NCBI RefSeq assembly: GCF_026341125.1
Contig: NZ_JAPEOR010000003.1
Location: forward strand, 496,001 to 560,000
Reading direction: 5' to 3'
Source: Streptomyces sp. NBC_01142
Lineage (GTDB): Bacteria > Actinomycetota > Actinomycetes > Streptomycetales > Streptomycetaceae
Length of the DNA: 64,000 nt
Part shown: positions 21,444 through 52,960 of the stretch, in pieces
Numbering within the stretch: the first letter of the stretch is position 1
Layout: each line of letters opens with the position of its first letter
Notes under the pieces: generated by a model
Told to the model about the DNA's origin: nothing
The model's input: the letters and a program-made list of their open reading frames with translations, nothing else
Database searches by the model: none
Made by a program: the position numbers and the translations under genes

Positions 21444-21459
21444 CCGGCCCGGCGCATCA

Positions 21460-25372: not shown

Positions 25373-28300
25373 GTGATCTCTCAGTCCGCCCGGTCCTTCC
25401 GTCGGGATCTCGTCGTCGTGGTCACCCCGTTCGAGGAACCCAATCCCCGGATGGTCGCCGCCGCGGAACGAGCCGGCGCGCTCGGCCTGCTCGACCTCGG
25501 CAGGGACCGCGACCGGGCGCGCACCGCGCTGGCAGGACTGCGCGGGCCGTACGGAGTCCGCGTACCGGCCCGGTGCCCGCTCACCCCGGACGAACTGCCC
25601 GCTGCCGTGGACACCGTCCTGCTCACCGAGCAGTGGTGGCGGACCGGGACGGACGTCTGGGCGGCCGGTGGCAGGCGTCGGGTGTGGGCCGAGGTCGTCA
25701 GCCCCGCCGAGGCCGCGGCCGCCGTCGCCGCCGGAGCGGCCGGGATCGTGGCCAAGGGGCACGAGGGCGGCGGGCGGGTCGGCGAACTGACCACCTTCGT
25801 ACTCCTGCAACGCCTGCTGGCCGAGCCCGGGTTGACCGTGCCGGTCCTCGCAATGGGGGGCATCGGCCCGCACACGGCCGCCGCCGCCGTCGCGGGCGGT
25901 GCCGCCGGCGTCGTACTGGACGCGCAGCTCGCGCTCACCACCGAAGGCGCGGCCGACCTGCCCGCCTCGGTCGCGGCCGCGGTCCGGGCCATGGACGGCA
26001 GTGAAACCACCGTCGTCGCGGGCCACCGTCTCTACACGCGCCCCGACGTCCTGCCGCCGGAGCCGGACGCGGACATCGCCGGCCTGCTGGGCGCCCGCAG
26101 CCTGCGCACCCAGCCACTGCCCATCGGCCAGGACGGCGCGGCCGCTGCCCGGCTCGCCGCGCGTCACCGCACCACCGGCTCCGTCGTACAGGCCGTACGG
26201 GCGGCCGTCACCGGACACCTCGAAGCAGCCGTACGGATCCGTCCTCTCCAGCCGCGCCCCGGCGAAGCGCGTCCGGCAGGGGAAGCCCGTCCGGCAGGGG
26301 AAGCCCGTCCGCCGGTGCAAGGCCGACTGCCGGTGGAACGCCGTCCGCCGGATGCGGGCCGCCCGGCCGTGGCTGACCGTCCGCCGGTGGTCCAGGGGCC
26401 CATGACCCGGGTCAGCGACCGGCCCGCCTTTGCCTCCGCCGTGGCCGGCGCGGGCGGACTGCCGTTTCTCGCCCTGGCCGTGATGGACGGCCGGGAGGTA
26501 CGCGAACTGCTCACCGAGACCGCCGTACGCCTTGCGGGTCGGCCCTGGGGCGTCGGCCTGCTCGGATTCGCCCCGGACGAACTGCGCCGTGAACAGCTCG
26601 CCGCCGTCGCCGAGGTGCGGCCGCCGTACGCGATCATCGCCGGCGGCCGCCCCGCCCAGGCCGCCCCGCTCGAAGCCGCCGGGACCAGGACCTATCTGCA
26701 CGTACCCTCGCCCGGACTGCTCGAGCGGTTCCTCGCCGAGGGAGCGCGGCGGTTCGTCTTCGAAGGGCTCGAATGCGGCGGCCACATCGGCCCGCGCGCG
26801 GCCTTCCCACTCTGGGAGGAGCAGATCGAGCGGCTGCTCTCCTGCCCGTACGCCGCCGAACTCGACGTGCTCTTCGCCGGTGGCATCCACGACGAGCGCT
26901 CCGCCGCGATGACCGCTGCCGCCGCAGCTCCGCTGGCCGAGCGCGGCGCCCGGACCGGCGTCCTCATGGGCACCGCCTACCTGTTCACCGAGGAGGCCGT
27001 CACCGCCGGAGCCGTGCTGCCCGGCTTCCAGCAGACGGCGGTCGACTGCACCACCACCGCTTTGCTGCGCACCGCCCCGGGCCACGCGACACGCTGCGCC
27101 GCCACCCCGTACGCCGGCACCTTCGCCGCCACCGCGCACCGGCTGCGGCAGGACGGCGCGAGTCCGAACGAGGTCTGGGAGGAACTGGAGAAGCTCAACC
27201 TCGGCCGGCTGCGGATCGCCAGCAAGGGCCTGCGCCACACCGGGGCCGGGCCCGTCCCGGTGGGGGAGGAGGAACAGCGCGGCGAGGGGCTCTACATGCT
27301 CGGCCAGATCGCCACCGCACGCACCGCCACCACCACGGTCGCCGCCCTGCACACCCAGGTGACCAACGGCGCCACCGCCCTGCTCGCCGAACGAGCCGAA
27401 CAGCTTCGCGTTCTGTCGGCCGAGCCCGTTCCGCCCGAGGAGGCCCCCCTCGACATCGCCGTGGTCGGCATGGCCTGCCGCTACCCCGGCGCGGGCGACA
27501 CCGCCGGGTACTGGGCGAACATCGTCGCCGGGACCGACGCCGTCACCGAGGTGCCCGCCGACCGCTGGGACACTGCCGCCTACCACGACCCCGACCCGGC
27601 GCGGGCAGGGGAGCGGACCCCGTCCCGATGGGGCGGTTTCCTGCAGCCCGCCCCGTTCGACGCGCTCGCCCACGGCATTGCCCCGGCCTCGCTCGGAAGC
27701 ATCGAACCGGTGCAACTGCTCGCCCTCGACATCGCCGCCCGTGCCCTCGCCGACGCCGGTTACACGGGCGAGCGGCACTTCGACCGCTCCCGTACGTCCG
27801 TCGTCTTCGGCGCCGAGGCAGGCACCGATCTCGCCGGAGCCTACGGCTTCCGCGCCCTGCACCCGGGCTATCTCGGCGAGCTGCCGCCCGAGCTGGACGC
27901 TCAACTGCCCCGGCTGACCGAGGACTCCTTCCCCGGCGTCCTGGCGAACGTCATCGCCGGGCGCGTCGCCAACCGGCTCGACCTCGGCGGCGCCAACTGC
28001 ACGATCGACGCCGCCTGCGCCTCCTCGCTCGCCGCTCTCGATCTGGCCTGCAAACAACTGCGCGACGGGGACAGCGACATGGCGCTGTGCGGCGGCGCCG
28101 ACGTGCACAACGGCATCAACGACTACCTCATGTTCGCCTCCGTACGCGCCCTGTCGCCCACCGGCCGGTGCCGCCCCTTCGACTCCACCGCCGACGGCAT
28201 CGCGCTGGGCGAGGGCGTCGCCTGTCTCGTCCTCAAGCGCCTGGCCGACGCCGAACGCGACGGCGACCGCATCTACGCCGTCGTCAAGGCCGTCGGCGCG

Positions 28301-31300
28301 TCGAGCGACGGGCGCTCCCTCGGCCTCACCGCGCCCCGCCCCGAAGGCCAGCGGCGGGCCCTGGAACGTGCCTACCGGCGGGCCGGGGTCGCACCCGCCG
28401 AGATCGGCCTCGTGGAGGCGCACGGCACAGGCACCGTCGTGGGTGACAGCACCGAACTGGCCGTCCTGACCGAGGTGTTCGGCGACGGAGACAGCGGTTC
28501 CTGCTCGCTCGGCTCGGTCAAGTCGCAACTGGGACATACGAAGTGTGCGGCGGGCCTGGCCGGTCTCATCAAGGCGGTACGGGCCGTGCACTGCGGCGTA
28601 CGGCCGCCGACTCTGCATCTGACCGCCCCCAACGGCGACTGGCAGCCGGACACCAGCCCCTTCTTCTTCGACACCGAAGCCAGACCGTGGGCCGTACCCG
28701 CCGCGCGGCGGCTCGCCGGGGTCAGCGCGTTCGGCTTCGGCGGCACCAACTACCACGCGGTCCTCGCCGGGTACGGGGACGCGGACGAGCCCGCGCACGG
28801 ACTGGAGGCCTGGCCCGCCGAGCTGTTCTGCTTCCGGGGCGCCGGCCGCCCGGCCGCCCTCCGTGCGATCGACCGCCTCGCCGCCCGGCTGGAGCAGAAC
28901 GACGCGGCAGGACGGCCCTGGCCGCTGCGCGACCTCGCCGCCGAGGTCTCCACGGAGGAGGGCCCGGTCCAGGTGGCGGTGGTCGCCACCGGCCTCGACG
29001 ACCTGGCCGAAAAGCTGCGCCGCGCCCGGGAGTTCGCCTCGGACGACGGCGTCCACGTGGCGGACGACGCGCATGCCCCCGGCCGTACCGCCTTCCTCTT
29101 CCCAGGACAGGGCAGCCAGCGGCCGGGCATGCTGAGCGACCTCTTCATCGCGTTCCCACGCCTGCGGACCCTGCTGCACGACGCCGATCCGCGCCGCGTC
29201 GCCACCATGTTCCCGCCCGCGGCCTTCACCCCCGGGGAACGAGCCGCCCAGCGCGCCGCCGTCACCGACACCCGGACCGCCCAGCCCGCCCTCGGCCTCG
29301 CCGGCGCCGCCGCACATCTGCTGCTCACGTCGCTCGGAGTACACCCCGACTGCACCGCCGGCCACTCCTACGGCGAGCTGGTCGCCCTCTGGGCCGCCGG
29401 TGCCTATGACACCGCGACCCTGCTGCGTCTCAGCGACCGCCGGGCCGACGCGATCCTCGCCGCAGCCGGGGACGACCCCGGAGCGATGGCCGCCGTGCCC
29501 GCGGCCCCGCACGATCTGCCGGAGCTTCCCGCCGGATGCGTCGTCGCCAACCACAACGCACCGGCGCAGAGCGTCATCTCCGGACCGACCCCGGCCGTCG
29601 ACGCCGCGATCGCCGCGCTGCGCGAGGTGGGCATCGCGGCCGATCGTATCCCCGTCGCCTGCGCTTTCCACAGCGACGTCGTCGCCGGTGCCGCCGGGGC
29701 GCTGGGCGCGGAGCTGGACGGTACGGCCGTGGCCGAGCCCGCCGTCCCGGTCTGGTCCAACACCACCGCCCGCCCGTACCCCACCGACCCAGGGGCGGTA
29801 AGGGAATTGCTGGCCCGCCAGCTCGCCGAACCCGTCCGGTTCGCCGAGCAGATCGAGGCCATGTACGCGGCCGGGGTGCGCACCTTCGTGGAGGCCGGCC
29901 CGGGCCGGGTCCTCACCGGTCTCGTCGGCCGCATCCTGGGTGACCGGCCGCACACCGCCGTCCCGCTCGACGTACCGGGCGAGCACGGCCTGACGCGCCT
30001 GCTCACCACGCTCGCCGAACTCGCCTCGGCAGGCGTCCCGTTCGAACCGGAGCCGCTGTTCAAGGGCCGTACCGCGGCGTTGCCCGCCGAGGCGCCCCGG
30101 CGCGCCGGATGGCTGGTGGACGGCCATCTCGTACGGACCGCGGACGGCGAGCCCGTGGCGGGCGGGCTGCGCCCTGCCCGGCGGGTGACGGCGTCCCGAC
30201 CGGTGGACGGGCGTCCGGCGGCGTCGGCCGTGGACCGGCGGGAGGACGCCGTACTGGAGTATCTGCGCGGGGCACGGGAACTGGTCGCCGCGCAACGGGA
30301 TGTCGTGCTGGGGTACTTGGGGGCGACCGGTTCGCCGTCGCCGGTGGTGATGCCGGTGGGGGAGCCGCATGCGCCGGAGATGTCCGTCTCTGCCTCCGGG
30401 CCGGTGCCGGTGCCTGTGTCCGGCGAAGTGCCTGTATCCGGCGGCGCCGAGGCCGGAGCCTCTCTGACGCCCAGTCAACTCATGGACGTGGTACTGGAAA
30501 TCGTTCACATCCGCACCGGCTACCCGAGGGAGATGCTCGACCCCGCACTCGACCTGGAGGCCGACCTCTCGGTCGACTCCATCAAACGGGTGGAGATCAT
30601 CGGGGCGCTGGCCGACCGGATCGGGCTGCCGCGCGGCGCGGACGGGCCGGCGGAGTCGGCCGTCGAGGAACTCTCCCGGCTGAAGACCATCAGCGGCATC
30701 GTCGACTGGATCGTGGCCCACAGTACGGGCCCGGAGCCCGCGGTCCCCACGCAAACGATCCCGGCAGCGGACCCGGTCGTCCTGTCGGCGGACGAGGGCA
30801 CGCCGAGCCCTGCCCCCCGCTCCGCCCGCCCCGCCCGCCTCCTGGTCGAGGTCACCCCCGTGGGACCGCCGGTCACGCGTGAACCCGCCGCCGTACTGCC
30901 CGGCCTGCGGTTCGCCGTCGTCGACGACGGCCTCGGTGTGGCCGTTGCCCTCGCCGCCGCGCTGGAGTCGTACGGCGCCGAGGTGCGTACCGTCCATCCG
31001 GACCGCCTGGCGGACGCCGCCGGCACCGACGGCGTGGTGGACCTCAGCGCACTGCGCCCGGCTCCGGACCCAGTGCTTCCGGAAGCCTTCGGCGCTCTGC
31101 GCGAGACCTTGATGGCGGGCACACGACGGCTGTTACTCGTCACCGGCTGCGGCGGAGCGTTCGGCCGTACGCCGCCCTCGCCGGAATCGGCGGGGCCCCC
31201 GGAATCGGCGGGCTCCCAGGCACCCTCGGACTCGCCGGGCGCGCTGAGCTCTGCCGATCCGGTGCCCGGCGCCGGCCTGTACGGCTTCGCCCGTACCGCG

Positions 31301-32392
31301 GCCATCGAATACCCCGGCACGGTGATCCGTGCCGTGGACGTCGACCCCAAGGACCGTCCCGAGCGGATCGCCTCTCATCTGATCGCCGAACTGTGCGCCC
31401 CCGAGGAGCCGGTGGCCGTCGGCTACACCAACGGCACCCGCAACACTCTGCGCACCGTTGCGGTCCCACTCGCCGTCCCACTCGCCGACGACGAACCGGC
31501 ACCACCGCTCCCCATCGGCCGCGACGCCGTGGTGCTGCTGACCGGCGGGGGCCGTGGCATCACCGCCCGTACGGCCGTCGCCCTCGCCGGCGCCACTGGC
31601 TGCCACATCGAACTCATCGGCCGTACCGCGCCCCCCGACGATGCCGAGGACCCGTCCGTCGCCCACGCCCACGACCGCGTCGCCCTGCGTGCGGCCCTCA
31701 TCCGGGAAGGCCTTCGTACGCCCTCGGACATCGAGGCGGCCGCGTCCCGGATTCTTGCCGCGCGCGAGATCCGCGCCACCCTCGACGCACTCTCGGGCGT
31801 CGCCGCGTCGGTGCGCTATCACGCGGCCGACGTCAGTGACCCCGACGCCGTACGGGCTGTCGTCCAGGACGTACGCGCACGTCACGGTCGGCTCGACGGG
31901 ATCGTGCACGGCGCCGGAACCATCGAGGACCGCTTGTTGTGCGACAAGGACCCGGCTTCCTTCGCGCGGGTGTTCACCACCAAGGTCGACGGCGCCCGCC
32001 ACCTCGCCGAAGCCGCCGCCGACCACGGCGACGACGCCCCCGCCCTCGCCTTCCTCGTCCTCTTCGGCAGTGTCGCCGGGGTCTTCGGCAACCGCGGCCA
32101 GGCCGACTACGCCGCCGCCAACGACGCCCTGGACACCCTCGCCGCCGCCCCCGCCTGGTCGCGCCGGTTCCCGGGCCGGGTCCTCGCCATCGACTGGGGC
32201 CCGTGGGCAGCCGGGGCAGGCGGCATGGTGACCCCGGAGCTGGAACGGATGTACGCGAGCCGCGGCATCGCGCTCATCGATCCGGACGGCGGCACCGCCG
32301 CGTTCCTCGCCGAGCTCGCACACGGCACCACGGGCCAGGTCGTCCTGCTGGCGGACGAGGGCACGCAGGGCCCGGAGGCCCGCCGTGGCTGA
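25373..32392 (+). CDS. PUFA-synthase-like PKS: flavin-flavin-KS-AT-ACP-KR
   Basis: A 2,339-residue multidomain synthase. Two nitronate-monooxygenase/PfaD-like flavin barrels come first (~10-215, with AKGHEGGGRVGE, His ~130; and ~344-600, with ECGGHIGPR, His ~471). They are joined by an E-A-R-P-A-G repeat linker. KS (~693-1130) has Cys882 in DAACASS, His1017 in EAHGTGT and His1055 in GHTKCA. AT (~1237-1540) has Ser1332 in GHSYGE. A single ACP has Ser1736 in LSVDSIKRVEI, the PUFA-type wording. KR (~2048-2320) has TGGGRG and Ser2233/Tyr2246/Asn2250. All catalytic residues are present. Flavin domains of this family act as trans enoyl reductases in PUFA synthases, so full reduction cycles are possible with the DH of the next protein. 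GTG 25373 is five bases after AAAGGAG. Chain length cannot be read from sequence. Confidence 0.92.
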   Translation: MISQSARSFRRDLVVVVTPFEEPNPRMVAAAERAGALGLLDLGRDRDRARTALAGLRGPYGVRVPARCPLTPDELPAAVDTVLLTEQWWRTGTDVWAAGGRRRVWAEVVSPAEAAAAVAAGAAGIVAKGHEGGGRVGELTTFVLLQRLLAEPGLTVPVLAMGGIGPHTAAAAVAGGAAGVVLDAQLALTTEGAADLPASVAAAVRAMDGSETTVVAGHRLYTRPDVLPPEPDADIAGLLGARSLRTQPLPIGQDGAAAARLAARHRTTGSVVQAVRAAVTGHLEAAVRIRPLQPRPGEARPAGEARPAGEARPPVQGRLPVERRPPDAGRPAVADRPPVVQGPMTRVSDRPAFASAVAGAGGLPFLALAVMDGREVRELLTETAVRLAGRPWGVGLLGFAPDELRREQLAAVAEVRPPYAIIAGGRPAQAAPLEAAGTRTYLHVPSPGLLERFLAEGARRFVFEGLECGGHIGPRAAFPLWEEQIERLLSCPYAAELDVLFAGGIHDERSAAMTAAAAAPLAERGARTGVLMGTAYLFTEEAVTAGAVLPGFQQTAVDCTTTALLRTAPGHATRCAATPYAGTFAATAHRLRQDGASPNEVWEELEKLNLGRLRIASKGLRHTGAGPVPVGEEEQRGEGLYMLGQIATARTATTTVAALHTQVTNGATALLAERAEQLRVLSAEPVPPEEAPLDIAVVGMACRYPGAGDTAGYWANIVAGTDAVTEVPADRWDTAAYHDPDPARAGERTPSRWGGFLQPAPFDALAHGIAPASLGSIEPVQLLALDIAARALADAGYTGERHFDRSRTSVVFGAEAGTDLAGAYGFRALHPGYLGELPPELDAQLPRLTEDSFPGVLANVIAGRVANRLDLGGANCTIDAACASSLAALDLACKQLRDGDSDMALCGGADVHNGINDYLMFASVRALSPTGRCRPFDSTADGIALGEGVACLVLKRLADAERDGDRIYAVVKAVGASSDGRSLGLTAPRPEGQRRALERAYRRAGVAPAEIGLVEAHGTGTVVGDSTELAVLTEVFGDGDSGSCSLGSVKSQLGHTKCAAGLAGLIKAVRAVHCGVRPPTLHLTAPNGDWQPDTSPFFFDTEARPWAVPAARRLAGVSAFGFGGTNYHAVLAGYGDADEPAHGLEAWPAELFCFRGAGRPAALRAIDRLAARLEQNDAAGRPWPLRDLAAEVSTEEGPVQVAVVATGLDDLAEKLRRAREFASDDGVHVADDAHAPGRTAFLFPGQGSQRPGMLSDLFIAFPRLRTLLHDADPRRVATMFPPAAFTPGERAAQRAAVTDTRTAQPALGLAGAAAHLLLTSLGVHPDCTAGHSYGELVALWAAGAYDTATLLRLSDRRADAILAAAGDDPGAMAAVPAAPHDLPELPAGCVVANHNAPAQSVISGPTPAVDAAIAALREVGIAADRIPVACAFHSDVVAGAAGALGAELDGTAVAEPAVPVWSNTTARPYPTDPGAVRELLARQLAEPVRFAEQIEAMYAAGVRTFVEAGPGRVLTGLVGRILGDRPHTAVPLDVPGEHGLTRLLTTLAELASAGVPFEPEPLFKGRTAALPAEAPRRAGWLVDGHLVRTADGEPVAGGLRPARRVTASRPVDGRPAASAVDRREDAVLEYLRGARELVAAQRDVVLGYLGATGSPSPVVMPVGEPHAPEMSVSASGPVPVPVSGEVPVSGGAEAGASLTPSQLMDVVLEIVHIRTGYPREMLDPALDLEADLSVDSIKRVEIIGALADRIGLPRGADGPAESAVEELSRLKTISGIVDWIVAHSTGPEPAVPTQTIPAADPVVLSADEGTPSPAPRSARPARLLVEVTPVGPPVTREPAAVLPGLRFAVVDDGLGVAVALAAALESYGAEVRTVHPDRLADAAGTDGVVDLSALRPAPDPVLPEAFGALRETLMAGTRRLLLVTGCGGAFGRTPPSPESAGPPESAGSQAPSDSPGALSSADPVPGAGLYGFARTAAIEYPGTVIRAVDVDPKDRPERIASHLIAELCAPEEPVAVGYTNGTRNTLRTVAVPLAVPLADDEPAPPLPIGRDAVVLLTGGGRGITARTAVALAGATGCHIELIGRTAPPDDAEDPSVAHAHDRVALRAALIREGLRTPSDIEAAASRILAAREIRATLDALSGVAASVRYHAADVSDPDAVRAVVQDVRARHGRLDGIVHGAGTIEDRLLCDKDPASFARVFTTKVDGARHLAEAAADHGDDAPALAFLVLFGSVAGVFGNRGQADYAAANDALDTLAAAPAWSRRFPGRVLAIDWGPWAAGAGGMVTPELERMYASRGIALIDPDGGTAAFLAELAHGTTGQVVLLADEGTQGPEARRG

Positions 32393-35300: not shown

Positions 35301-37361
35301 CGGGCACTGCTCGCCGCAGGCGCTGAGCCCGGTGAGCGGACCGCGCTCGCCCGGTCCGCCGCGCCGGCCACCCCCGACGCGCCGCCCATGCCCACCGGAC
35401 CTGCCCGGCACGATTCCCCCGCCGCCCCTTCGGGCCCCGAACGGGGCGTCCCGGTACGGCTCGACCTGGGTTCTCCGCTCGTACGCCTCAACGGCGCCGC
35501 GCCACCGCTCTCCCTGGCCGGCCCGTCGCGGACCGGTGGTCGGCCACCCGTCGCCGGTCCCCCGGGACTGCTGTCGGCCCTGGACGCCGTACTCGACGAG
35601 ACAAAGGAGGCGGCGCACAGCGTTGCCGCAGCCTGGCGAGCAGCTCCGGCCACACAAGTGGCCCCCACCGCCGGGGAGTTCGGCGGAACACCCGGACGGC
35701 AGCCGACCGGGCGGCCCGCGCCCGGTACCTCCTCCTCCGCCCCGCCCGCCCCGCCCGCCCACCGCACCCGGCGGCGGCTTTCCCTCGAGACCATGCCGTA
35801 CGTCCTCGACCACTGCGTCTATCTCCAGCCCGACACCTGGCCCGAGGCCTCGGACCGGTTCCCCGTCGTCCCCATGACCACGCTGCTGGAACTGGCCGCG
35901 GACGCCGCACGCCAGACCGTTGCGCAACGCGCGGTGACCGGCTTCGACGACGTACGGGCCCTGCGCTGGCTGGCCGTCGCCCCGCCCGTCGACGCGGCGG
36001 TCCACGCCGTCCCCGACCCCTCCGGCGACGGCCGGGTCCGGGTCGAGATCGGCGGGTGCGCGACCGTCACCGTCGTCCTCGCCGACCGCCACTCCCCACA
36101 CCCCGCCCCCGATCTCTCGGCACTGACCCGTGAGAGCCCGCCTCCCGTCAGCGCCGAGGCTCTCTACCGCGACCGGTGGATGTTTCACGGGCCGGCCTTC
36201 GCCGGTGTCCACGAGGTGACCGCCGTCGCCGACGACGGCATTCATGGGGTGCTGCGTGCGCTGCCCGCGCCGGGTGCGCTGCTGGATGCCGCCGGGCAAC
36301 TGCTCGGGCACTGGATGCAGTTGCGTCTTCCCGCCGACCGACTGGTCTTCCCGGCGTCGCTGGAGCGGGTCCGCCTGTACGGGCCCCCACCACGCGACGG
36401 CGCGCTGCTGCGTGCCACCGCCCGGATCCGCGCCGTGCGGCCCGACTCCGTACGCGGCGACGTGGAGCTCACCTTGGCCGACGGCACGGTCTGGGCCCGT
36501 CTGGAGGGCTGGACGTACCGGCGCTTCGCCGCCGACGAGCGGGTGTGGCCGATGAAGTTCACCCCGGAGATCTGCGGCATCGGCGAGCCGCAGTCCGGCG
36601 GCTGGTGTCTGGCCCGGCGCCGCTGGACCGACCCTGCCTCGCAGGAGCTGGTCATGCGGCGCTATCTGGGCGCGGCCGAGCGGGCGGCGTACGAGCAGCG
36701 CCCGCCGCGCGGCCGTGCTGCCTGGCTGCTCGGGCGGATCGCGGCCAAGGACGCCGTACGCCAACTCCTGTGGGAGCGGGATGCGGGACCGGTCTTCCCC
36801 GTCGAGATCCCCGTGGGCAACGACCGTGTCGGCCGCCCCCGCCCGGAAGGCCCGCTCGCCGCCGGACTCCGGCTCTCCCTCGCCCACAAGGACCGGGTGG
36901 CGGTCGCGTACGCCCATGCCGCCGACGTCGGCATCGACATCGAGACCGTCACCGAGGACCCCCGGGCGCTGAGCCGCATCGCGCTCACCGCCGACGAGCG
37001 GCGGCTCGCCGACCGGCTTGCCGCGCGTGACGGATCCGGGCGGCTCGCCCGGGCGCTCACCGCACTGTGGTGTGCCAAGGAGGCCGCCGCCAAGGCGGAG
37101 GGCACCGGCCTGGGCGGACGGCTGCGGCAGTGGACCGTCATCGCCGGGAGCGCGAGCGGTGAACTCCGTGTCACCTCGCCCGAAGGCCGGGACCACGTCG
37201 TCCGGATCAGTACGGTCCACGATCCGTCCGGCCCGGACGATCACGGCGGCCCGGACGGCGAACCCGCGACCCATGTCGTCGCCTGGACCGTGCCGGACGG
37301 CTCCCTCACCCCATCAGTCACCCCCACCCCGGACTCGACGGAGGCCCCTCATGCCATCTGA
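32385..37361 (+). CDS. PUFA-synthase-like PKS: KS-AT-DH-PPTase
   Basis: A 1,658-residue partner synthase overlapping the first by 8 bp (GTG start). KS (~10-480) keeps Cys221 in DAACASS, His359 in EAHGTGT and His399 in GHTMQA, so it is an active condensing domain, not a chain-length-factor copy. AT (~605-900) has Ser676 in GHSLGEW. After an Ala/Pro linker (~925-1120) comes a double-hotdog dehydratase (~1125-1390) with His1143 in VLDHCVY and an LDAAGQLLGHW segment. The C-terminus (~1440-1640) is a Sfp-type phosphopantetheinyl transferase with Asp1518 in VGIDIE and the WCAKEAAAK motif from 1562, which should activate the ACPs of this locus. The ACP lies in the upstream protein and in the free ACP just downstream. 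Confidence 0.9.
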   Translation: MADASRGPRPTDAAIVGMGAVFPGAADLAAYRRNLVAGTDAITDVPPGRWDPEVYYHPEGSEGPARSDHFYCRRGGFIDELAAFDPTRFGIMPAAVAGAEPDQLLALRVIAEAVADAGGEQRLPADRSRIGVILGRGGFMGVATARLDQRVRTAHQLAATLRELAPELGEDRITAVREAFQAGLGPERPEASIGLVPSFTAARTANRLDFQGPAYTLDAACASSLLAVEQAAGLLAGGSCDLVVAGAVHHCHIATLWSVFTQLRALSPSQRIRPFDRRADGTLLSEGTGVVVLKRLADAERDGDRVYAVVRGTGVAGDGRAASLMSPLVDGQVRALNRAWGQAGLDPSAPDALGLLEAHGTGTPVGDEAELATLARVFGPRAAGTERVATGSVKSMLGHTMQASGMAGLIKAALAVHDGVLPPTLHLDDPHEGFDRTRMRPVTTAEPWHRGQAPRRAGVNAFGFGGINAHVVLEETPGAGAVPFVPVPAPVSVSVRAGAQDRGQSVPQPSAERRRPERTAEPAAGAVPTLLAAATPRELGRLVEELPDAGAFPGAAPPRSAGPCRLVVLGLTPKRRALAAAVIARGKPWRGRGGVWFSPSPLLAHDARLAFLFPGLEPDFAPYVDDVADHFGLARPALTGGDALVERAVDAIAVGRLFARVLPELGIQADLLAGHSLGEWTAMVVAGMYPQHAVDTFLDSLRPGDLDVPDLVYAALGCGAGQATDALRGLDRVAVSHDNCPHQSVLCGEPGPVSEALTRLAVQGVLAQELPFRSGFHTPMWAPYLDQVRAAFARLPLRPPTVPVWSATTGAAYPETEGAVRDVVLRHLLEPVRFRELTARLYAEGVRAFVQMGPGSLPAFVTDTLNGRDHLAVSAGAPRGTGGLDQLRRLAAALWTEGLDPRWELLTGAGHTSSAGSAPAVAATSAASAMAAAPAALTEPAALAESAGPTGRAGLAAPAALAVPAVSSERTMRALLAAGAEPGERTALARSAAPATPDAPPMPTGPARHDSPAAPSGPERGVPVRLDLGSPLVRLNGAAPPLSLAGPSRTGGRPPVAGPPGLLSALDAVLDETKEAAHSVAAAWRAAPATQVAPTAGEFGGTPGRQPTGRPAPGTSSSAPPAPPAHRTRRRLSLETMPYVLDHCVYLQPDTWPEASDRFPVVPMTTLLELAADAARQTVAQRAVTGFDDVRALRWLAVAPPVDAAVHAVPDPSGDGRVRVEIGGCATVTVVLADRHSPHPAPDLSALTRESPPPVSAEALYRDRWMFHGPAFAGVHEVTAVADDGIHGVLRALPAPGALLDAAGQLLGHWMQLRLPADRLVFPASLERVRLYGPPPRDGALLRATARIRAVRPDSVRGDVELTLADGTVWARLEGWTYRRFAADERVWPMKFTPEICGIGEPQSGGWCLARRRWTDPASQELVMRRYLGAAERAAYEQRPPRGRAAWLLGRIAAKDAVRQLLWERDAGPVFPVEIPVGNDRVGRPRPEGPLAAGLRLSLAHKDRVAVAYAHAADVGIDIETVTEDPRALSRIALTADERRLADRLAARDGSGRLARALTALWCAKEAAAKAEGTGLGGRLRQWTVIAGSASGELRVTSPEGRDHVVRISTVHDPSGPDDHGGPDGEPATHVVAWTVPDGSLTPSVTPTPDSTEAPHAI

Positions 37362-37698
37362 CCCCACGGCCGCACGGATACTCGCGGAGGTCACCGCCAT
37401 GCTCGTGGAGACGGTCGGCGACGAGTTCCTCCTCGTGGACGAGGTCACCCTGAAGACCACCTTCAACGAGGATCTGGCGCTGGAGAGCATCGAGTTCGTC
37501 GCACTCGCCGAGCTGCTGCAGCAGCGCTACGGAGCGGCGGTGGACCTGATCGGTTTCCTGGCCGAGAAGGACATGGAGGAGATCCTGGCCATGACCGTCG
37601 GCGACCTGGTCTCCCACATCGCCGCGGCCGTGCCCTCGGCCTCCTCCGCTTCCTCGGTCTCCTCTGCTTCCTCCGCTCCTTCGGCCCCGGCAGCCTGA
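37351..37698 (+). CDS. Free acyl carrier protein
   Basis: A 115-residue acyl carrier protein. Helix 2 carries the attachment serine, Ser46, in LALESIEFVALAELLQQRYG, preceded by LKTTFNEDL. LIGFLAEKDMEEILAMTVGD completes the four-helix fold. The tail is a run of Ser/Ala (SASSASSVSSASSAPSAPAA) with no fold. The start overlaps the end of the synthase gene by 11 bp and has GGAGG nine bases upstream. The motif reads LES rather than the DSL of fatty-acid ACPs, as in several secondary-metabolism ACPs. It may take the finished chain to the downstream hydrolase or glycosyltransferase; that is inference. Confidence 0.85.
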   Translation: MPSDPTAARILAEVTAMLVETVGDEFLLVDEVTLKTTFNEDLALESIEFVALAELLQQRYGAAVDLIGFLAEKDMEEILAMTVGDLVSHIAAAVPSASSASSVSSASSAPSAPAA

Positions 37699-37704
37699 CC
37701 CGCC

Positions 37705-38508
37705 ATGGCCGACATCCACGCCAACGCGACCCGCTTCCATGTCCACCGGCTCTCCGGCGACGGCACGGGCGCGGCCGTCGTCTTCCTGCACGGTCTGGTC
37801 GTCGACAACCTCTCCAGCTTCTACTGCACGCTCGCCCTCCCCACCGCCCAGGCCGGACACGACGTCGTCCTGTACGACCAGCGCGGCCACGGCCGCACCG
37901 AACGCCCGCCCACCGGCTACGACGCCGCCACCGCCGTACGCGACCTGACTGCCCTGCTCGCCGCCCTCGATCTCGACGAACGCCCCGTCCACCTCATAGG
38001 CAACAGCTACGGCGGCACCCTCGCACTGCACACCGCGCTCGCCCGCCCCGACCTCGTGGCCGGGCTCATCCTGATCGAGGCTCCGCTGAGCGGTCCCTGG
38101 ATCGAGAACATGCTCGACACGCTCTCTGTCGCCGCCCTGGACCTCGAAGGCAGCCAGGTGCCGCAGGAACTCGCCTCGATCGGAGCGCGCAAGGCCGCCC
38201 GGCTCACCGCCACGGCCGACGCACTGCTGAACCGCACCACCCTGATCGACGACATCGCGGCGAGCCGGCCGTTCACACCCGCGGACTTCGCCCGGGTGCG
38301 CTGCCCCGTGCTGGCAGTCTGCGGGGAGCACTCCGAACTCGTGCCGGGCGCCCGGGAACTGGCCCGCCACGCGCCGCACTGCACCGTCCGTGTCCTGCCG
38401 GGTCTGGGCCACGACGTCCTCCAGGGCGGCACCGGGGAGTTGCGGCGTGCGGTGCTGGACCGGCTGGCCGAGGCCGCGCGCCGGCAGCCCGAGGCGGTGA
38501 CCGTATGA
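37705..38508 (+). CDS. Alpha/beta hydrolase, possible chain-releasing thioesterase
   Basis: A 267-residue alpha/beta hydrolase. The oxyanion region is FLHGLVVDN, followed by YDQRGHGRT. The nucleophile elbow is GNSYGG (Ser at ~104), the acid is probably in VCGEHSEL (~211-216), and the general base is in LGHDVL (~236). There is no signal peptide. It follows the free ACP gene by six bases, so it is translationally coupled with the synthase. The synthases carry no thioesterase domain, so this enzyme is the natural candidate to release or edit the acyl chain. An amide or ester hydrolase role cannot be excluded. Confidence 0.85.
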   Translation: MADIHANATRFHVHRLSGDGTGAAVVFLHGLVVDNLSSFYCTLALPTAQAGHDVVLYDQRGHGRTERPPTGYDAATAVRDLTALLAALDLDERPVHLIGNSYGGTLALHTALARPDLVAGLILIEAPLSGPWIENMLDTLSVAALDLEGSQVPQELASIGARKAARLTATADALLNRTTLIDDIAASRPFTPADFARVRCPVLAVCGEHSELVPGARELARHAPHCTVRVLPGLGHDVLQGGTGELRRAVLDRLAEAARRQPEAVTV

Positions 38509-39671
38509 AGGTGCTGTTCGTCGTTCCACCGCTCGCCGGACACATCAACCCCACGGTCGCCGTCGCCGCCGAACTGGCCGCACGCGGGCACCGGGTCGCC
38601 TGGAGCGGACCGGCCGAAGTACTGCCGCGGCTTCTGCCCGCGACCGCGGAGCTCTTTCCCGCCGGCGACCGTGCCGGGTCCTCGGACTACGGCACGCTGC
38701 ACGCGCACTGGCGCGATCTGCGCGGCGTCGCCGCCCTGCGCTTCCTATGGGAGGAGGCGCTCATTCCGCTCGCCCACGCCATGCTGCCCGGTGTCGAGGC
38801 GGCGGCCGACGCGTACGCCCCCGATCTGCTCGTCGTCGACCAGCAGGCGCTTGCCGGAGCGGTGATCGCTCAGCGGCTCGGGCTTCCCTGGGTGACGTCC
38901 GCGACGACCTCGGCCGAGTTCACCCGGCCCTTCGCCGGCTTTCCGAAGGTGGGGGAGTGGGTGGCGGACCGGATCGCCGGACTGCTCGCCGCATGCGGCG
39001 CACCCGGCGGCTGGGATCCCCGCTTCTCGGACCGCCTGGTCCTGGTCTTCTCCACCCCCGCACTCGTCGGCGCGGACGAGCTGTACCCCGAGCACTACGC
39101 ATTCGTCGGCCCCGCGCTGGGCCAGCGCCCCGCCCACGCCACACCCTTCGCCTGGCAGCGGCTCGATCCCGTACGGCGCCGGGTCCTGGTCTCGCTCGGC
39201 ACGCTCAACCGGGAGGCGGGCGGCCGCTTCTACGCCACCGTCCTGCAGACCGCGGAACAGCTGGCCGACCGGGTGCAGCTGATCCTGGCCGCGCCCGCGG
39301 ACCTGGTCGGCGACGTGCCGGATCACCTCCTGCTCCAGGAGTACGTCCCCCAACTCCAGCTGCTGCCCCACCTCGACGCCGTGGTCAGCCACGGCGGGCA
39401 CAACACCGTGTGCGAGGCGCTCGCCCACGGCCTGCCCCTGGTCGTCGCGCCCATCCGCGACGACCAGCCGATCGTCGCGCAGCAGGTCGCGGCCGCCGGG
39501 GCCGGAATCCGGGTGCGCTTCGGCCGGCCCCGCGCGGGCGAGCTCCGCGACGCACTCGAAGCCGTCCTCGACGAACCCGCCCACCGGCGGGCCGCCCGCC
39601 GCATCCAGGCCTCCTTCGCCGCGGCCGGCGGAGCCGCCGCCGCGGCCGACAGGTTGGAGAAGCTGACATGA
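38505..39671 (+). CDS. GT1-family glycosyltransferase (macrolide/MGT type)
   Basis: A 388-residue GT-B glycosyltransferase. The acceptor-side N-terminus reads MKVLFVVPPLAGHINPTVAVA, and the sugar-nucleotide motif near the end reads VSHGGHNTVCEALAHGLP and DDQPIVAQQV, typical of MGT/UGT enzymes that glycosylate small hydrophobic aglycones. Its start overlaps the previous stop (ATGA). It should transfer a sugar from an NDP-donor to the polyketide or fatty-acid-like product. No deoxysugar genes are nearby, so a common sugar nucleotide is the likely donor. Confidence 0.9.
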   Translation: MKVLFVVPPLAGHINPTVAVAAELAARGHRVAWSGPAEVLPRLLPATAELFPAGDRAGSSDYGTLHAHWRDLRGVAALRFLWEEALIPLAHAMLPGVEAAADAYAPDLLVVDQQALAGAVIAQRLGLPWVTSATTSAEFTRPFAGFPKVGEWVADRIAGLLAACGAPGGWDPRFSDRLVLVFSTPALVGADELYPEHYAFVGPALGQRPAHATPFAWQRLDPVRRRVLVSLGTLNREAGGRFYATVLQTAEQLADRVQLILAAPADLVGDVPDHLLLQEYVPQLQLLPHLDAVVSHGGHNTVCEALAHGLPLVVAPIRDDQPIVAQQVAAAGAGIRVRFGRPRAGELRDALEAVLDEPAHRRAARRIQASFAAAGGAAAAADRLEKLT

Positions 39672-41551
39672 CGCAGCCCCGTACCCAGCCCCGTACCCGA
39701 GTCCCGTGGGCGGCCGTCGCCGTACTCGCCGGGCTCACGGCCGGCACCGTGCGAGCCCGTCGCCGACTGGCCGGCGTACCCGTGCTGGATCCGCTCCCCA
39801 CCCCGGACAACGCGCCGCCCCCGCACGGCTGGCACCTGATCAGCGCCCGAGGAGTCGACGTCGACCAAGCCACCCTCCACGCTGCTGCCGCCCACGCGGA
39901 ACAGGCCGGTCTGCACGTCCTTGACCTGCTCCCGGGCCGCCTGGACACGGAGCGTGCTCTGGGTCTGCTCCGCATTCTCGACCTCGGCGAATCCCACTCC
40001 CACTACGACCGCACGGCCCAGGCGCGCGGCGCAGGACACGCGGTTCTCGTCTCCGAGGACGTCCGGCGCAGGGCGAAAATCGAGTGCGACAGCGGCCTCG
40101 GGTCGGCGGAACTGCACACGCTCCTGCGGCGTTTGAAGGAGTACGCCCCCGCGGAGACCGGCGTCGCCATCGCCCCCCGCCTGGCAGCCCCCGCCCCCGA
40201 CCCCGCCCTGCGTGCCGAAGAGCTGCGCGCCCAGGGGCTGCCCCCGAGCCTGGTGGCCGCCACTCAACTGGCAGGTCTGGCCCTCCTCGCCCGCGCCGCC
40301 GTCGCGGACCGGCGTTGGGGCGCCGCGGCCGCCGCCCTGTACTGCCTCCAGCCGGCTCTGGTCCTCGGCGGCCCCGGCAGCCCGCTGCGCCCGGCCGATC
40401 TGGCCCGCACCACTGCCGCGCGGCCCCTGCGCTCCCTCGGCGCCGCGCTGCGTACCGCGGTGAGCGACCGCCCGGGCCCGGCCGGACCGTCGCCCGAACT
40501 GGAGGCCCTGCGCCCGTACTACACAGCCGAACTCAAGGCCGGCGCCGACCGGTTCCTCGAGCCCCGCCGCCCCGACTGCCCGTGGTGCGGCTCCGACCGG
40601 CTCTCCGTACGCACCCGCATGCCCGATCTGCTCCAGGGCAAGCCGGGCCGCTTCACTCTCGAACAGTGCGGCGACTGCGGGCACGTCTTCCAGAACCCCC
40701 GACTCTCCCTCGACGGCCTCGACTTCTACTACCGGGACTTCTACGAGGGGCTCGGCGTCAGCGGCGCCGCCCACGTGTTCGGCTCGATGGGCCGCTCGTA
40801 CCGCGCCCGCGCCGCCATGCTCAAACCGTTCGGCACGCCCGCCGCCTGGCTCGATGTGGGCACCGGACACGGCCACTTCTGCGACAGCGCGCGCGACATC
40901 TGGCCCGATACCCGCTTCGACGGGCTGGACATGGCCGCGGCGGTGCGCGAGGCGGAGGCCCGCGGCTGGGTCGCGACCGCCCACCACGGCCAGTTCCCCG
41001 AGCTCGCCGCGGGGCTCGTGCGCCGCTACGACACCGTCAGCATGTACCACTACCTGGAGCACACCCGCGACCCGCTCGCCGAGCTCGACGCGGCCGCCGA
41101 AGTGCTGCCCCCCGGCGGGCATCTGCTCATCGAGCTGCCCGACCCCGAATCGCGGCTCGCCCGCCTGCTGGGACCGTACTGGCTGCCCTGGTTCCAGCCC
41201 CAGCACCAACACCTCATGCCGGTCGCCAACCTCCGACAGGCCCTGGCCGAGCGGGGGTTCACCGTCCTGGCCGAGGAGCACGGCGCGGCCCACCAGTCCT
41301 GCGACTTCTTCGGCGCCGTCCTCCTCACAGCGAACCGGCTCGCCCCGCACCCGTACGCCCCCTGGGGGCCGGGCACGGCTCCCTGGACCCGTCGGTGGGC
41401 CCGCGCGGCCGTACGTACGGTGTCCCTGCCGTGCTTCGCCGTCGCCGCGGCCCTCGACGGGGTGCGTGCGGCAGTGGCCCGCGCCACCGACGGCGGAAAC
41501 GCCTATCGCCTGGTGGCGCGCAGAACATCGCCCGCCCGCGATGCGGAGTAA
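39668..41551 (+). CDS. Two-part protein with zinc-ribbon SAM methyltransferase
   Basis: A 627-residue protein starting at an ATGA overlap. The N-terminal ~290 residues begin with a hydrophobic helix (WAAVAVLAGLTAGTVRA) and contain a region I do not recognise, ending in further apolar stretches (VAATQLAGLALLARAAVADR) that suggest membrane contact. The C-terminal ~330 residues are a class I methyltransferase of the zinc-ribbon type: CPWCG and CGDCG at ~303-340 form the metal site, LDVGTGHGHF (~394) is the SAM-binding loop, then MYHYLEHTRDPLAEL and HLLIELPDPES. The zinc-ribbon class often methylates sugars or lipid-linked products, so it may act on the glycosylated product. The N-terminal part looks like a natural fusion, since no stop or frameshift intervenes. 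Confidence 0.82.
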   Translation: MTQPRTQPRTRVPWAAVAVLAGLTAGTVRARRRLAGVPVLDPLPTPDNAPPPHGWHLISARGVDVDQATLHAAAAHAEQAGLHVLDLLPGRLDTERALGLLRILDLGESHSHYDRTAQARGAGHAVLVSEDVRRRAKIECDSGLGSAELHTLLRRLKEYAPAETGVAIAPRLAAPAPDPALRAEELRAQGLPPSLVAATQLAGLALLARAAVADRRWGAAAAALYCLQPALVLGGPGSPLRPADLARTTAARPLRSLGAALRTAVSDRPGPAGPSPELEALRPYYTAELKAGADRFLEPRRPDCPWCGSDRLSVRTRMPDLLQGKPGRFTLEQCGDCGHVFQNPRLSLDGLDFYYRDFYEGLGVSGAAHVFGSMGRSYRARAAMLKPFGTPAAWLDVGTGHGHFCDSARDIWPDTRFDGLDMAAAVREAEARGWVATAHHGQFPELAAGLVRRYDTVSMYHYLEHTRDPLAELDAAAEVLPPGGHLLIELPDPESRLARLLGPYWLPWFQPQHQHLMPVANLRQALAERGFTVLAEEHGAAHQSCDFFGAVLLTANRLAPHPYAPWGPGTAPWTRRWARAAVRTVSLPCFAVAAALDGVRAAVARATDGGNAYRLVARRTSPARDAE

Positions 41552-41557
41552 CGGGAC

Positions 41558-42502
41558 ATGCAGACGAACATCCAGACGGACAGGGTGAGGGACAGGACGA
41601 CGGACAGGACGACGGACAGGGTGAGGGACGGGCAGGCACTGGACATCGCCCGTCGCCCCACCGCCGACCCGCTCTTCCGGCTGGTCGCCTACGCCCTCGA
41701 GTCGGCACACGACCGCCACCCGGCCACGGTGTGGAGTGCCCCGCATGCCTTCCATCTCGGCTCGCCCCGCCTCGTCGCCGCCGCCGGCTGGCCGGTGGCC
41801 GCCGCCGCGGCACCGCGCGACGACGGCCTGGTGCGGCTGAGCTCGCTCGCCCACCCCGCGCAGAGCTGCGAACTCCCGCTCACCGGCCCGCCACCGCCCC
41901 ACCCCGACTGGGCCGCCCGCACCTATGCGCTGCTGCGCACCATGGCCCGCGCCGGGTACGGCCGAGGGGGCATCGACCTGCACATCCACTCCACGTTGAC
42001 GACCGCGGTCGGGCTGTCGAGCGCGGAGCCGCTGGAGTGCGCCGTGGCACTGGCCGTCGCCGACCTGCACTCCGGCGGGGCCAGACCGCGGCCGCCCCGC
42101 GGTCGGCTGGCCGCCCTCGCCGAGGCCGCCGCCCCCGACGGCGACGAAGCCCTGCGCAGTGCCGTGCTGTTCGCCCGGCCGGGGCGGGCACTGCTGCTGG
42201 GTGACAGCCGGCCGCGCCGCATCCGCTTCGACCCGGCCGAACACGGGGCGCGGCTGATGCTGCTGGTGACCCGCGGTGGCACGGAGGACACCGGTCGGGC
42301 GGTGGACAGCGCCCGGCGTGCGGGTGCCACGGCTTCCTGGTGGCCGGGACTCCAGCCGGGGCGCAGTGCCCTGGTGCTGCTGCCTCAGGCCCGGCTGACC
42401 GATGTACGTACCGCCGTGGCCGAGGAGTTCCGCAGCCGCGGACGCCCCGTGCCGCGCCTGTTGAACATCACCGTGGCGGGCGCGGCCCGCCACGAGGACT
42501 GA
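41558..42502 (+). CDS. GHMP-kinase-like (galactokinase-related) protein
   Basis: A 314-residue protein of the GHMP superfamily. The ATP-loop region reads TTAVGLSSAEPLECAVALAV, matching galactokinase's GLSSSAALECAVAL but with A-E-P in place of S-A-A. The acidic RIRFDPAEHGARLMLLVTRG and the C-terminal PGRSALVLLPQ-like region follow the family order. The length is shorter than galactokinase (~380), and the sugar-binding N-terminal signature (GRVNLIGEHTDYNGG type) is missing, so a pseudo-kinase or altered substrate is likely. The first ~27 residues are a low-complexity D/R/T tail from a DNA repeat and may not be part of the fold. It begins six bases after the methyltransferase gene. It may phosphorylate or sense a sugar for the glycosyltransferase. 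Confidence 0.68.
   Translation: MQTNIQTDRVRDRTTDRTTDRVRDGQALDIARRPTADPLFRLVAYALESAHDRHPATVWSAPHAFHLGSPRLVAAAGWPVAAAAAPRDDGLVRLSSLAHPAQSCELPLTGPPPPHPDWAARTYALLRTMARAGYGRGGIDLHIHSTLTTAVGLSSAEPLECAVALAVADLHSGGARPRPPRGRLAALAEAAAPDGDEALRSAVLFARPGRALLLGDSRPRRIRFDPAEHGARLMLLVTRGGTEDTGRAVDSARRAGATASWWPGLQPGRSALVLLPQARLTDVRTAVAEEFRSRGRPVPRLLNITVAGAARHED
41575..41629 (+). repeat. Direct repeats at the start of the GHMP-kinase-like gene
   Basis: GACGGACAGGGTGAGGGAC occurs at 41575-41593 and again at 41611-41629. Between them, GACAGGACGACG is repeated at 41591 and 41603. They encode an R-T-T-D-R-T-T-D-R-V-R-D tail in frame. The repeats look like slippage that lengthened the N-terminus, so the true start of the ancestral gene may have been nearer 41640. 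Confidence 0.75.
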
Positions 42503-42575
42503 GAAAGCCGAGAGACAGAGACAGAGAAGGAAGAGAACAGAGGCAACAAAGGAAAGAAGAAGGACCAAGGAGGAA
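42501..42575 (+). other. 75-base purine-rich leader without any T
   Basis: From 42501 to 42575 the plus strand has no T and only nine C; the rest is A or G. It spans the gap between the GHMP-like stop and the phosphoesterase start and ends in the ribosome site AAGGAGG (42567-42573). In RNA this would be single-stranded and a good ribosome landing zone. It contrasts sharply with the 72% GC surroundings. Confidence 0.85.
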
Positions 42576-42582
42576 TGCCCGC

Positions 42583-49198: not shown

Positions 49199-49311
49199 GC
49201 GCGCTCCTCGGCTGCGGCCACCGCATCGGCTGCGGTGTCCGGCAAGTGTCCGTACTCGCCGGGCACCGCCCGCACCATTGCGCCAACCGTGGGCCCGACC
49301 CCCGGGACCGG

Positions 49312-51581: not shown

Positions 51582-51592
51582 GGTGTGCGGCC

Positions 51593-52921: not shown

Positions 52922-52960
52922 GGTGAGCGTCCTTCCGAAGGGGTGGGAGAAGCGGGAGGT

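What the first reader, a model, noticed from the sequence alone, without database searches (positions are those of the whole stretch)
25373..42502. PUFA-synthase-like locus wired to sugar chemistry: candidate glycolipid pathway
Seven tightly spaced genes join two PUFA-like synthases, a free ACP, a hydrolase, a GT1 glycosyltransferase, a methyltransferase and a GHMP-kinase-like protein. Two of the junctions are ATGA, the synthases overlap, and no gap exceeds 7 bases. A DH and KR plus flavin reductases allow reduced chains; the GT, methyltransferase and kinase fit a sugar-bearing product. S. coelicolor has a PUFA-like locus annotated for eicosapentaenoate, but the product of this type is not settled to my knowledge.
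Basis: partly seen in the sequence, partly recalled or inferred. Interest (0 to 1): 0.78.

Follow-up and report, generated by a model that had tools for sequence, protein, structure and literature searches.

The report
Actinobacterial lipid synthase with swapped headgroup
A soil bacterium carries a compact gene set that probably builds a long fatty chain and attaches a sugar to it; related bacteria keep the same chain-building genes but put a sulfate-adding enzyme in the sugar enzyme's place, and the product is still unknown.

Summary
The seven-gene array at 25373-42502 is real. PKS1 is FabK-type ER, ER, KS, AT, one ACP, KR; PKS2 is KS, AT, PKS-type DH, PPTase; then free ACP, alpha/beta hydrolase, GT1, methyltransferase (MT) and a galactokinase-like protein.

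PKS1-PKS2-ACP-hydrolase is a recurrent cassette. Of 150 Streptomyces genomes, 49 hold the PKS2 tail; 46 of these also pass the GT threshold, and the other 3 show the GT when read. In 80 named loci the next gene is a GT (54) or a sulfotransferase (24, Micromonosporaceae); 2 are truncated. This fits one acyl chain with a lineage-specific headgroup.

The 'kinase' is a dead galactokinase: none of four galactokinase motifs is intact in 120 homologues read, yet selection keeps it. A PUFA product is unlikely: no FabA-type dehydratase, no CLF, PfaA score under cut-off.

antiSMASH probably files such regions as hglE-KS; no product turned up in eight literature searches. Best reading: a reducing iterative synthase making a hexosylated, methylated long-chain lipid. 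New variant of a known kind; chemistry untested.

The parts
24130..25026 (-). LysR-type regulator, divergent from the array
   Evidence: Pfam HTH_1 and LysR_substrate; in the same place in 6 of 10 fetched loci
25373..32392 (+). PKS1: two N-terminal FabK-type enoyl reductase barrels, KS, AT, one ACP, KR
   Evidence: Pfam; both barrels match solved FabK-type enoyl reductases; active-site motifs present; alternative GTG start at 25367
32385..37361 (+). PKS2: KS, AT, PKS-type DH, phosphopantetheinyl transferase
   Evidence: Pfam; KS cysteine, DH His/Asp and PPTase motifs present
37351..37698 (+). free acyl carrier protein
   Evidence: weak Pfam PP-binding (19.8 bits against cut-off 20.8), NCBIfam ACP models below their cut-offs; LESIEF serine motif; 67-86% identical in 9 related loci
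37705..38508 (+). alpha/beta hydrolase, likely chain release or transfer
   Evidence: Pfam Abhydrolase; GNSYG and GLGH motifs; part of the cassette in relatives
38505..39671 (+). GT1 (MGT/YjiC-like) glycosyltransferase
   Evidence: Pfam EryCIII-like_C and UDPGT; NCBIfam MGT below cut-off; solved YjiC, Kcn28 and oleandomycin GT relatives; HGGHNT and GHINP motifs
39668..41551 (+). SAM methyltransferase with Zn ribbon and an extra N-terminal domain of about 275 aa with no known family; probably membrane-associated
   Evidence: Methyltransf_23; no family or solved relative for the N-terminal part; hydrophobic stretches at about 12-30, 190-214 and 578-604
41558..42502 (+). catalytically dead galactokinase homologue (psGalK); start may be 41621
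   Evidence: near whole-length profile match to galactokinase 6TEP; galactokinase motifs lost or degraded; dN/dS under 0.5 in five pairs
42584..43800 (+). phosphoesterase-family protein, probably secreted, conserved neighbour
   Evidence: Pfam PF04185 and Ig-like domain on the ORF 42340-43800; downstream of psGalK in 10 of 10 loci; the start at 42584 and the signal peptide are my reading of the sequence
43831..45153 (+). MFS transporter, possible exporter
   Evidence: Pfam MFS_1; present in 7 of 10 loci
45150..46166 (+). PD40 beta-propeller-like protein, probably not core
   Evidence: weak Pfam PD40; found in only 1 of 10 loci

Best explanation
The array encodes a self-contained, reducing iterative type I synthase. 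PKS1 extends and ketoreduces on its own ACP, PKS2 supplies dehydration, a second KS/AT and its own PPTase, and the two FabK-type barrels reduce the double bonds. The likely product is a long, mostly saturated, probably hydroxylated acyl chain, not a methylene-interrupted PUFA. The chain is handed to the free ACP and/or released by the alpha/beta hydrolase. The GT1 then adds a hexose to a hydroxyl of the chain; the sugar would come from primary metabolism, because no sugar-nucleotide genes were found among the array genes scanned. The MT then methylates the glycolipid. psGalK is a non-catalytic accessory protein, perhaps a partner of the GT or MT. In Micromonosporaceae the same hydroxyl would be sulfated instead. 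Shown: gene content, domain and motif content, conservation, GT/sulfotransferase alternation, loss of kinase motifs, purifying selection. Inferred: chain type, acceptor hydroxyl, order of steps, role of psGalK, export.
For: Domains and motifs. Order kept in 9 of 10 fetched loci. PKS2 tail in 49 of 150 Streptomyces genomes; the GT passes its threshold in 46 of those 49, each time on the same strand within about 3 kb by the coordinates; the other 3 show the GT on reading, one cut by a contig end. Of 80 named loci, 54 have the GT next to the hydrolase (39 of them with a 4-nt overlap) and 24 have a sulfotransferase (23 next to a called hydrolase); none was found with both, 2 are truncated. Sulfotransferase identified by Pfam on one representative, G346, the rest by BLAST to it; PAPS-supply-like genes lie near it in 8 of 24 of those loci, against 1 of 54 GT loci. 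In the tree 20 sulfotransferase rows form one clade (SH-aLRT 100) beside GT-bearing ones. MT occurs in 26 of 54 GT loci, and beside a GT and an acyltransferase without any PKS on one plasmid.
Against: No chemistry, and no member with a known product was found. The GT is of the macrolide/small-molecule GT1 type, so the acceptor need not be a lipid. Chain length and hydroxylation cannot be read from sequence. MT is absent from 28 of 54 GT loci, so methylation is optional, and MT-domain relatives also stand alone beside unrelated genes. One sampled genome, G002, has a related GT without the cassette in the 19.9 kb read.
Confidence: 0.58

Rival explanations
1. The synthase makes a polyene or short specialised polyketide, not a lipid, and the GT decorates that product.
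For: The GT matches macrolide-type GT1 models and solved antibiotic GTs; the KS-AT part of PKS1 matches solved modular and iterative type I PKSs in general.
Against: Two flavin ERs plus DH and KR suit full reduction. In 10 of 54 GT loci the next gene is an ABC exporter of multidrug/lipid type (by mutual similarity, three read by eye), and the out-of-class locus G240 has a wax-ester-synthase-like gene next to its psGalK relative (by eye); both suit a lipid but do not prove one.
Confidence: 0.2
2. The GT and the sulfotransferase are self-protection enzymes that inactivate a toxic product inside the cell, and another enzyme reverses this outside.
For: NCBIfam lists self-immunity and inactivating macrolide GTs among the weaker matches; a phosphoesterase-family gene and an MFS gene follow in window-type loci.
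Against: No glycosidase was identified among the window array genes scanned; the Micromonosporaceae loci were not scanned for sulfatases. Matches to the inactivating-GT models are far below cut-off (104.5 of 700 and 86.9 of 700 bits).
Confidence: 0.1
3. It is a PUFA (EPA-type) synthase, as the S. coelicolor annotation would suggest.
For: Best NCBIfam hit for both PKS proteins is PfaA; 22 of 69 PKS1 relatives counted carry 2-3 ACP motifs.
Against: PfaA model below cut-off; no FabA-type dehydratase domain found even at E up to 1 on PKS2; the KS of PKS2 keeps its cysteine, so it is not a CLF.
Confidence: 0.03

Closest known systems
Heterocyst glycolipid (Hgl) pathway of cyanobacteria
   Same: Iterative KS/AT synthase plus KR, separate acyl handling and a glycosyltransferase, giving a glycosylated long-chain lipid (gene set recalled; C26-C32 chains stated in PMC13291983, passage seen). 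Streptomyces genomes are reported with 'hglE-KS' or 'heterocyst glycolipid synthase-like' regions (PMC11677201, PMC12472026, PMC8466323, passages).
   Different: No thioester reductase among the array genes scanned; an alpha/beta hydrolase instead; ERs are fused to PKS1 and the PPTase to PKS2; MT and psGalK are added. No Hgl sequence was compared here.
PfaABCDE polyunsaturated fatty acid synthases
   Same: KS-AT-ACP-KR order of PKS1 and an NMO/FabK-family ER (Pfa order in PMC3098273 passage)
   Different: One ACP in the window, PKS-type DH instead of the PfaC DH pair, no CLF, PPTase fused to PKS2, below the PfaA cut-off
Enediyne PKS (PksE)
   Same: Overall KS-AT-ACP-KR-DH-PPTase order, closest in the single-protein version of G332; the PksE order is recalled
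   Different: Extra ERs and a second AT, and in the window a second KS (absent in G240 and G332); no enediyne accessory gene was identified among the array genes scanned
Secondary lipid synthase types L and M of Shulse and Allen 2011 (PMC3098273, passages read)
   Same: Pfa-like synthases in actinobacteria with uncharacterised products
   Different: Type L is described with KS-CLF-DH2-AT and a 5' pfaD; Type M domain layout is only in a figure that is not held, so it could not be compared
Fattiviracin, cycloviracin and glucolipsin macrodilactone glycolipids
   Same: Actinobacterial glycolipids with long hydroxy fatty acids and glucose; cycloviracin carries sugars methoxylated at C2 (PMC4365757 passages)
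   Different: No gene cluster for them turned up; neither Kibdelosporangium nor S. microflavus is named among the 120 listed of 3786 GT homologues
Galactokinase (GHMP superfamily)
   Same: Near whole-length profile alignment to 6TEP, E 1.5e-18
   Different: No intact galactokinase motif of four in the 120 homologues listed, the window's own included, of 187 found

Membership tests
PfaABCDE PUFA synthase | PfaA model TIGR02813 above curated cut-off | tested here: not met
   871 and 429 bits against 1010
PfaABCDE PUFA synthase | FabA-type dehydratase domains in PfaC | tested here: not met
   only PKS-type DH (PS-DH, PKS_DH_N) found; that PfaC DHs are FabA-type is recalled
PfaABCDE PUFA synthase | KS-CLF pair | tested here: not met
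   one KS in each protein, both with DAACASS cysteine; two relatives, G240 and G332, lack the second KS
PfaABCDE PUFA synthase | multiple tandem ACPs | tested here: not met
   one ACP motif in the window and in 9 of 9 window-type orthologues with a PKS1; 2-3 in 22 of 69 other PKS1 relatives counted by motif, some of them truncated
PfaABCDE PUFA synthase | PfaD-like flavin enoyl reductase | tested here: met
   two FabK/NMO-family barrels fused to PKS1
Heterocyst glycolipid pathway | glycosyltransferase linked to the synthase | tested here: met
   GT1 beside the PKS2 tail in the 49 cassette-bearing Streptomyces genomes of 150
Heterocyst glycolipid pathway | thioester reductase releasing a fatty alcohol (recalled) | tested here: not met
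   none among the array proteins scanned by Pfam; a hydrolase instead
Enediyne PKS | conserved enediyne accessory genes | tested here: not met
   none identified among the array proteins scanned by Pfam and NCBIfam; the accessory set is recalled
Galactokinase | substrate, nucleotide and catalytic motifs (GEHTDY, GLSSS, G-x-x-DQ, GGGFG) | tested here: not met
   0 of 120 listed homologues for each of four patterns; lost or degraded in the alignment against five motif-bearing GalKs; residue roles are recalled
GT1 glycosyltransferase | family domains and conserved motifs | tested here: met
   Pfam EryCIII-like_C, UDPGT; HGGHNT and GHINP; donor and acceptor not testable
Shulse-Allen Type M | domain layout and KS phylogeny of Type M | not testable with these tools
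   layout is only in Figure 1 of PMC3098273, not held; none of the Type M species named in that paper is among the 80 loci kept of 314

The most novel reading that the evidence does not exclude
A modular actinobacterial lipid system in which one conserved synthase-ACP-hydrolase cassette is paired with interchangeable headgroup enzymes, sugar in most families and sulfate in Micromonosporaceae, so that a single acyl chain becomes a glycolipid or a sulfolipid by lineage. In the window's clade a catalytically dead galactokinase has become an obligatory partner of the GT or MT, as degenerate P450s do for some macrolide GTs (recalled analogy). The product may be a new class or the orphan fattiviracin/cycloviracin type.
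Probability: 0.3. Interest if true: 0.75.

Novelty: new variant of a known kind. Interest (0 to 1): 0.55.

Why it matters
About a third of the Streptomyces genomes sampled (49 of 150) carry this cassette, named relatives come from at least seven actinobacterial families, and no product was found in the searches run here. The GT/sulfotransferase alternation is a natural experiment: comparing a Streptomyces and a Micromonospora product should reveal a common acyl core with different headgroups, which would fix the chemistry of the whole family. The dead galactokinase, labelled 'galactokinase' in many public records, is a misannotation and a candidate new type of accessory protein.

Tried and rejected
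Structure prediction for the MT and psGalK was switched off, so the MT N-terminal domain stays unassigned; profile searches of Pfam and of PDB sequences gave nothing for it. No viral-contig relative of psGalK. The PKS2 tail has no solved relative at E 0.01. The fattiviracin/cycloviracin link was tested by literature and by names of GT homologues: no support, not excluded. I first thought that G012 had lost its PKS genes; in part wrong: it keeps the PKS2 tail, ACP, hydrolase, GT and MT at 8.15 Mb and psGalK, phosphoesterase and MFS at 4.15 Mb, with no PKS1 beside either, so its array is split and broken. Three Streptomyces genomes that looked GT-less have the GT. In the tree, 7 rows (3 GT, 3 sulfotransferase, 1 unlabelled) form a far clade, and because of them the tree as built needs 2 changes for the sulfotransferase label; I read this as the PKS2 KS picked up where the PKS1 KS was off the contig, and set them aside. 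The 80 loci are the best of 314 by similarity to a sulfotransferase-type query, so the 54:24 ratio is not a census, and no window-type (psGalK) locus is among them. Claims about print rest on searches only, of which 18 and 61 showed 25 of 32 and 20 of 299 papers.
Full report
The locus. The window lies in a 10.1 Mb genome (G000). That its genus is Streptomyces is inferred: the G089 contig of the same-genus sample has the length, 5,691,859 bases, of the contig given for Streptomyces gobiensis homologues, and the close homologues of genes 6 and 7 that carry a name are Streptomyces records. Seven + strand genes run from PKS1 to a GHMP-like gene with overlaps or gaps of at most 6 nt if the last starts at 41558. 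PKS1 has two N-terminal flavin barrels, each matching solved FabK-type enoyl reductases (E 7.4e-11 and 5.5e-14), then KS, AT, one ACP and KR. PKS2 has KS, AT, PKS-type DH and a PPTase domain. The active-site motifs that I looked for are present; the DH His and Asp and the GID and AKEA residues of the PPTase are invariant across seven divergent homologues.

Not a PUFA synthase. The PfaA model is the best NCBIfam hit for both proteins but below its cut-off (871 and 429 of 1010 bits). No FabA-type dehydratase was found, the domain that I recall as needed for methylene-interrupted double bonds; the second KS keeps its cysteine and is not a CLF. Reading: a reducing iterative synthase, product saturated or hydroxylated.

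Conservation in Streptomyces. psGalK orthologues (56-71% identity) occur in 10 of 149 other genomes of the genus sample, plus a partial one at a contig end (G046); the other matches are at about 31-40%, and the five of them that I read carry the galactokinase GEHTDY motif. In 9 of the 10 loci fetched the order PKS1-PKS2-ACP-hydrolase-GT-MT-psGalK-phosphoesterase holds (one contig starts inside PKS1); MFS follows in 7 of 10 and LysR precedes in 6 of 10. The tenth, G012, is split over two places. The PKS2 tail is in 49 of 150 genomes. The GT passes E 1e-80 in 47 of 150; 46 genomes are in both lists, in each with the GT on the same strand within about 3 kb by the printed coordinates, 3 have only the PKS2 tail and 1 (G002) only the GT. 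Reading those 3 loci shows the GT after the hydrolase in each (one cut by a contig end), so 49 of 49. G002 has its GT relative without the cassette in the 19.9 kb read.

Beyond Streptomyces. In 346 genomes spread over the phylum the PKS2 tail is in 7, the window's own included, and a full-length MT match only in the window's genome and in G240; five other genomes match the MT domain alone. G240, from another class, has PKS1, a PKS2 without KS, ACP, hydrolase, GT, long MT, a psGalK relative (29%) and then a wax-ester-synthase-like gene. G332 has one 3222-aa synthase with a single KS, then ACP, hydrolase, GT and a psGalK relative, with no MT seen. G362 has PKS1, PKS2, ACP, two hydrolases and a GT, with no MT or psGalK match in the 30 kb read. 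G346 has a sulfotransferase (Sulfotransfer_3) in the GT place, with CysQ/CysD/CysN-like genes downstream.

Headgroup alternation. A named scan found 314 relatives and kept 80. Of these 80, 54 have the GT directly after the hydrolase, 24 have a sulfotransferase (23 directly after a called hydrolase, one where my caller shows no hydrolase), 2 end before that point; none was found with both. Labels are by BLAST to the window, G346 and G240 proteins, on genes called by my own simple caller; Pfam was run on G346 only. Of the 24, 22 are labelled Micromonosporaceae in the tree and the other 2, absent from it, bear the genus name Micromonospora. PAPS-supply-like genes are near the sulfotransferase in 8 of 24 (one on the other strand), and CysN/CysD-like genes also stand in 1 of 54 GT loci. 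On the PKS1 KS tree (95 rows, 4 of them outgroup, quick method) 20 sulfotransferase rows form one clade (SH-aLRT 100) next to GT-bearing rows, while the window, 9 Streptomyces orthologues, G240 and G332 form another (96). Seven rows that seem to carry the PKS2 KS were set aside; with them the tree as built needs 2 changes for the sulfotransferase label. The root rests on long-branched generic PKSs, so 'GT first, sulfotransferase later' is likely but not proven. After the GT, an MT is found in 26 of 54 loci (354-398 aa), and in 10 of 54 the next gene is an ABC exporter of multidrug/lipid type (one similarity cluster, three members read by eye). Two plasmid records matched the PKS2 and MT queries in the same order; the one whose region I read, NZ_CP108492, shows the whole cassette with GT and short MT.

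The dead galactokinase. psGalK aligns along nearly its whole length to galactokinase 6TEP by profile (E 1.5e-18), but only 10 of 27 members reach even a weak GHMP_kinases_N match. Against five motif-bearing GalKs, GRVNLIGEHTDY, the GIMDQ region and GGGFGG are gone, and GLSSSAALE is degraded to forms such as GLSSAEPLE or GLATAEP. Of 187 homologues found, 120 are listed (the window's own included), and 0 of these 120 hold any of the four intact patterns. Many of those records are nevertheless named 'galactokinase'. dN/dS in five orthologue pairs is 0.19-0.45, beside 0.15-0.27 for the hydrolase, 0.11-0.25 for the GT and 0.21-0.41 for the MT (Nei-Gojobori in my own script). So the protein is kept by selection, though in 3 of the 5 pairs it is the least constrained of the genes compared. 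It was found only in window-type loci, G240 and G332; a very divergent copy elsewhere could have been missed. That clade is also the one with the long MT, G332 excepted. I propose an accessory role for GT or MT; this is inference by analogy with degenerate P450 activators of macrolide GTs (recalled).

Methyltransferase. The MT has a Zn ribbon and a Methyltransf_23 domain. The N-terminal 275 aa matches no family or solved chain; the protein has hydrophobic stretches near both ends. A plasmid locus without PKS has acyltransferase, MT (53%) and a GT (28% to the window's) in a row, which fits sugar or glycolipid methylation.

Literature. [quoted passage not shown] coelicolor (passage). antiSMASH-type regions named hglE-KS or heterocyst glycolipid synthase-like are reported in S. 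sirii BP-8, S. olivoreticuli YNK-FS0020 and S. nojiriensis (passages). An MT homologue here comes from a record named Streptomyces sp. BP-8, and S. olivoreticuli ATCC 31159 has two cassettes, so this family is probably what the label catches; I did not match the regions. The four hglE-KS regions of S. olivoreticuli YNK-FS0020 are listed with best-known clusters at 54, 13, 21 and 13%, and that of S. nojiriensis with none. A 2026 survey of hybrid PUFA-like clusters (PMC13291983, abstract, outline and passages) does not, in what I saw, describe this cassette. No paper with its product was found in searches.

Verdict.

Noticed in passing
window 21352-22389 (+): ATP-grasp gene with MvdD-type pre-ATP-grasp domain, suggesting a graspetide RiPP locus just upstream of the array.
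   Followed up: no
window 48485-54634 (-): By eye, a sugar ABC transporter set and a GH13-like enzyme lie downstream (starts of the called proteins); DUF1275 found in the ORF 48485-50134.
   Followed up: no
window 17716-18069 (+): Cupin gene with an 82-83% identical homologue just downstream of the cassette in both G107 and G013.
   Followed up: partly
G012 (L039, L040, L068, L194, L195): Cassette split: PKS2 tail to MT at 8.15 Mb, psGalK to MFS at 4.15 Mb, the latter in one open frame with an FAD-oxidase-like sequence.
   Followed up: partly
L161 and L162 (Streptomyces olivoreticuli); genome G055: Two cassettes in one genome: in S. olivoreticuli one has an MT after the GT and one does not; G055 has two PKS2 tails each with a GT nearby.
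   Followed up: no
L064, L065, L066, L067: Stand-alone relatives of the MT domain in a shared chromosomal neighbourhood unrelated to the cassette.
   Followed up: no
L071 (NZ_CP108583, Streptomyces sp. NBC_01187 plasmid): Acyltransferase, MT and GT in a row without a PKS.
   Followed up: partly
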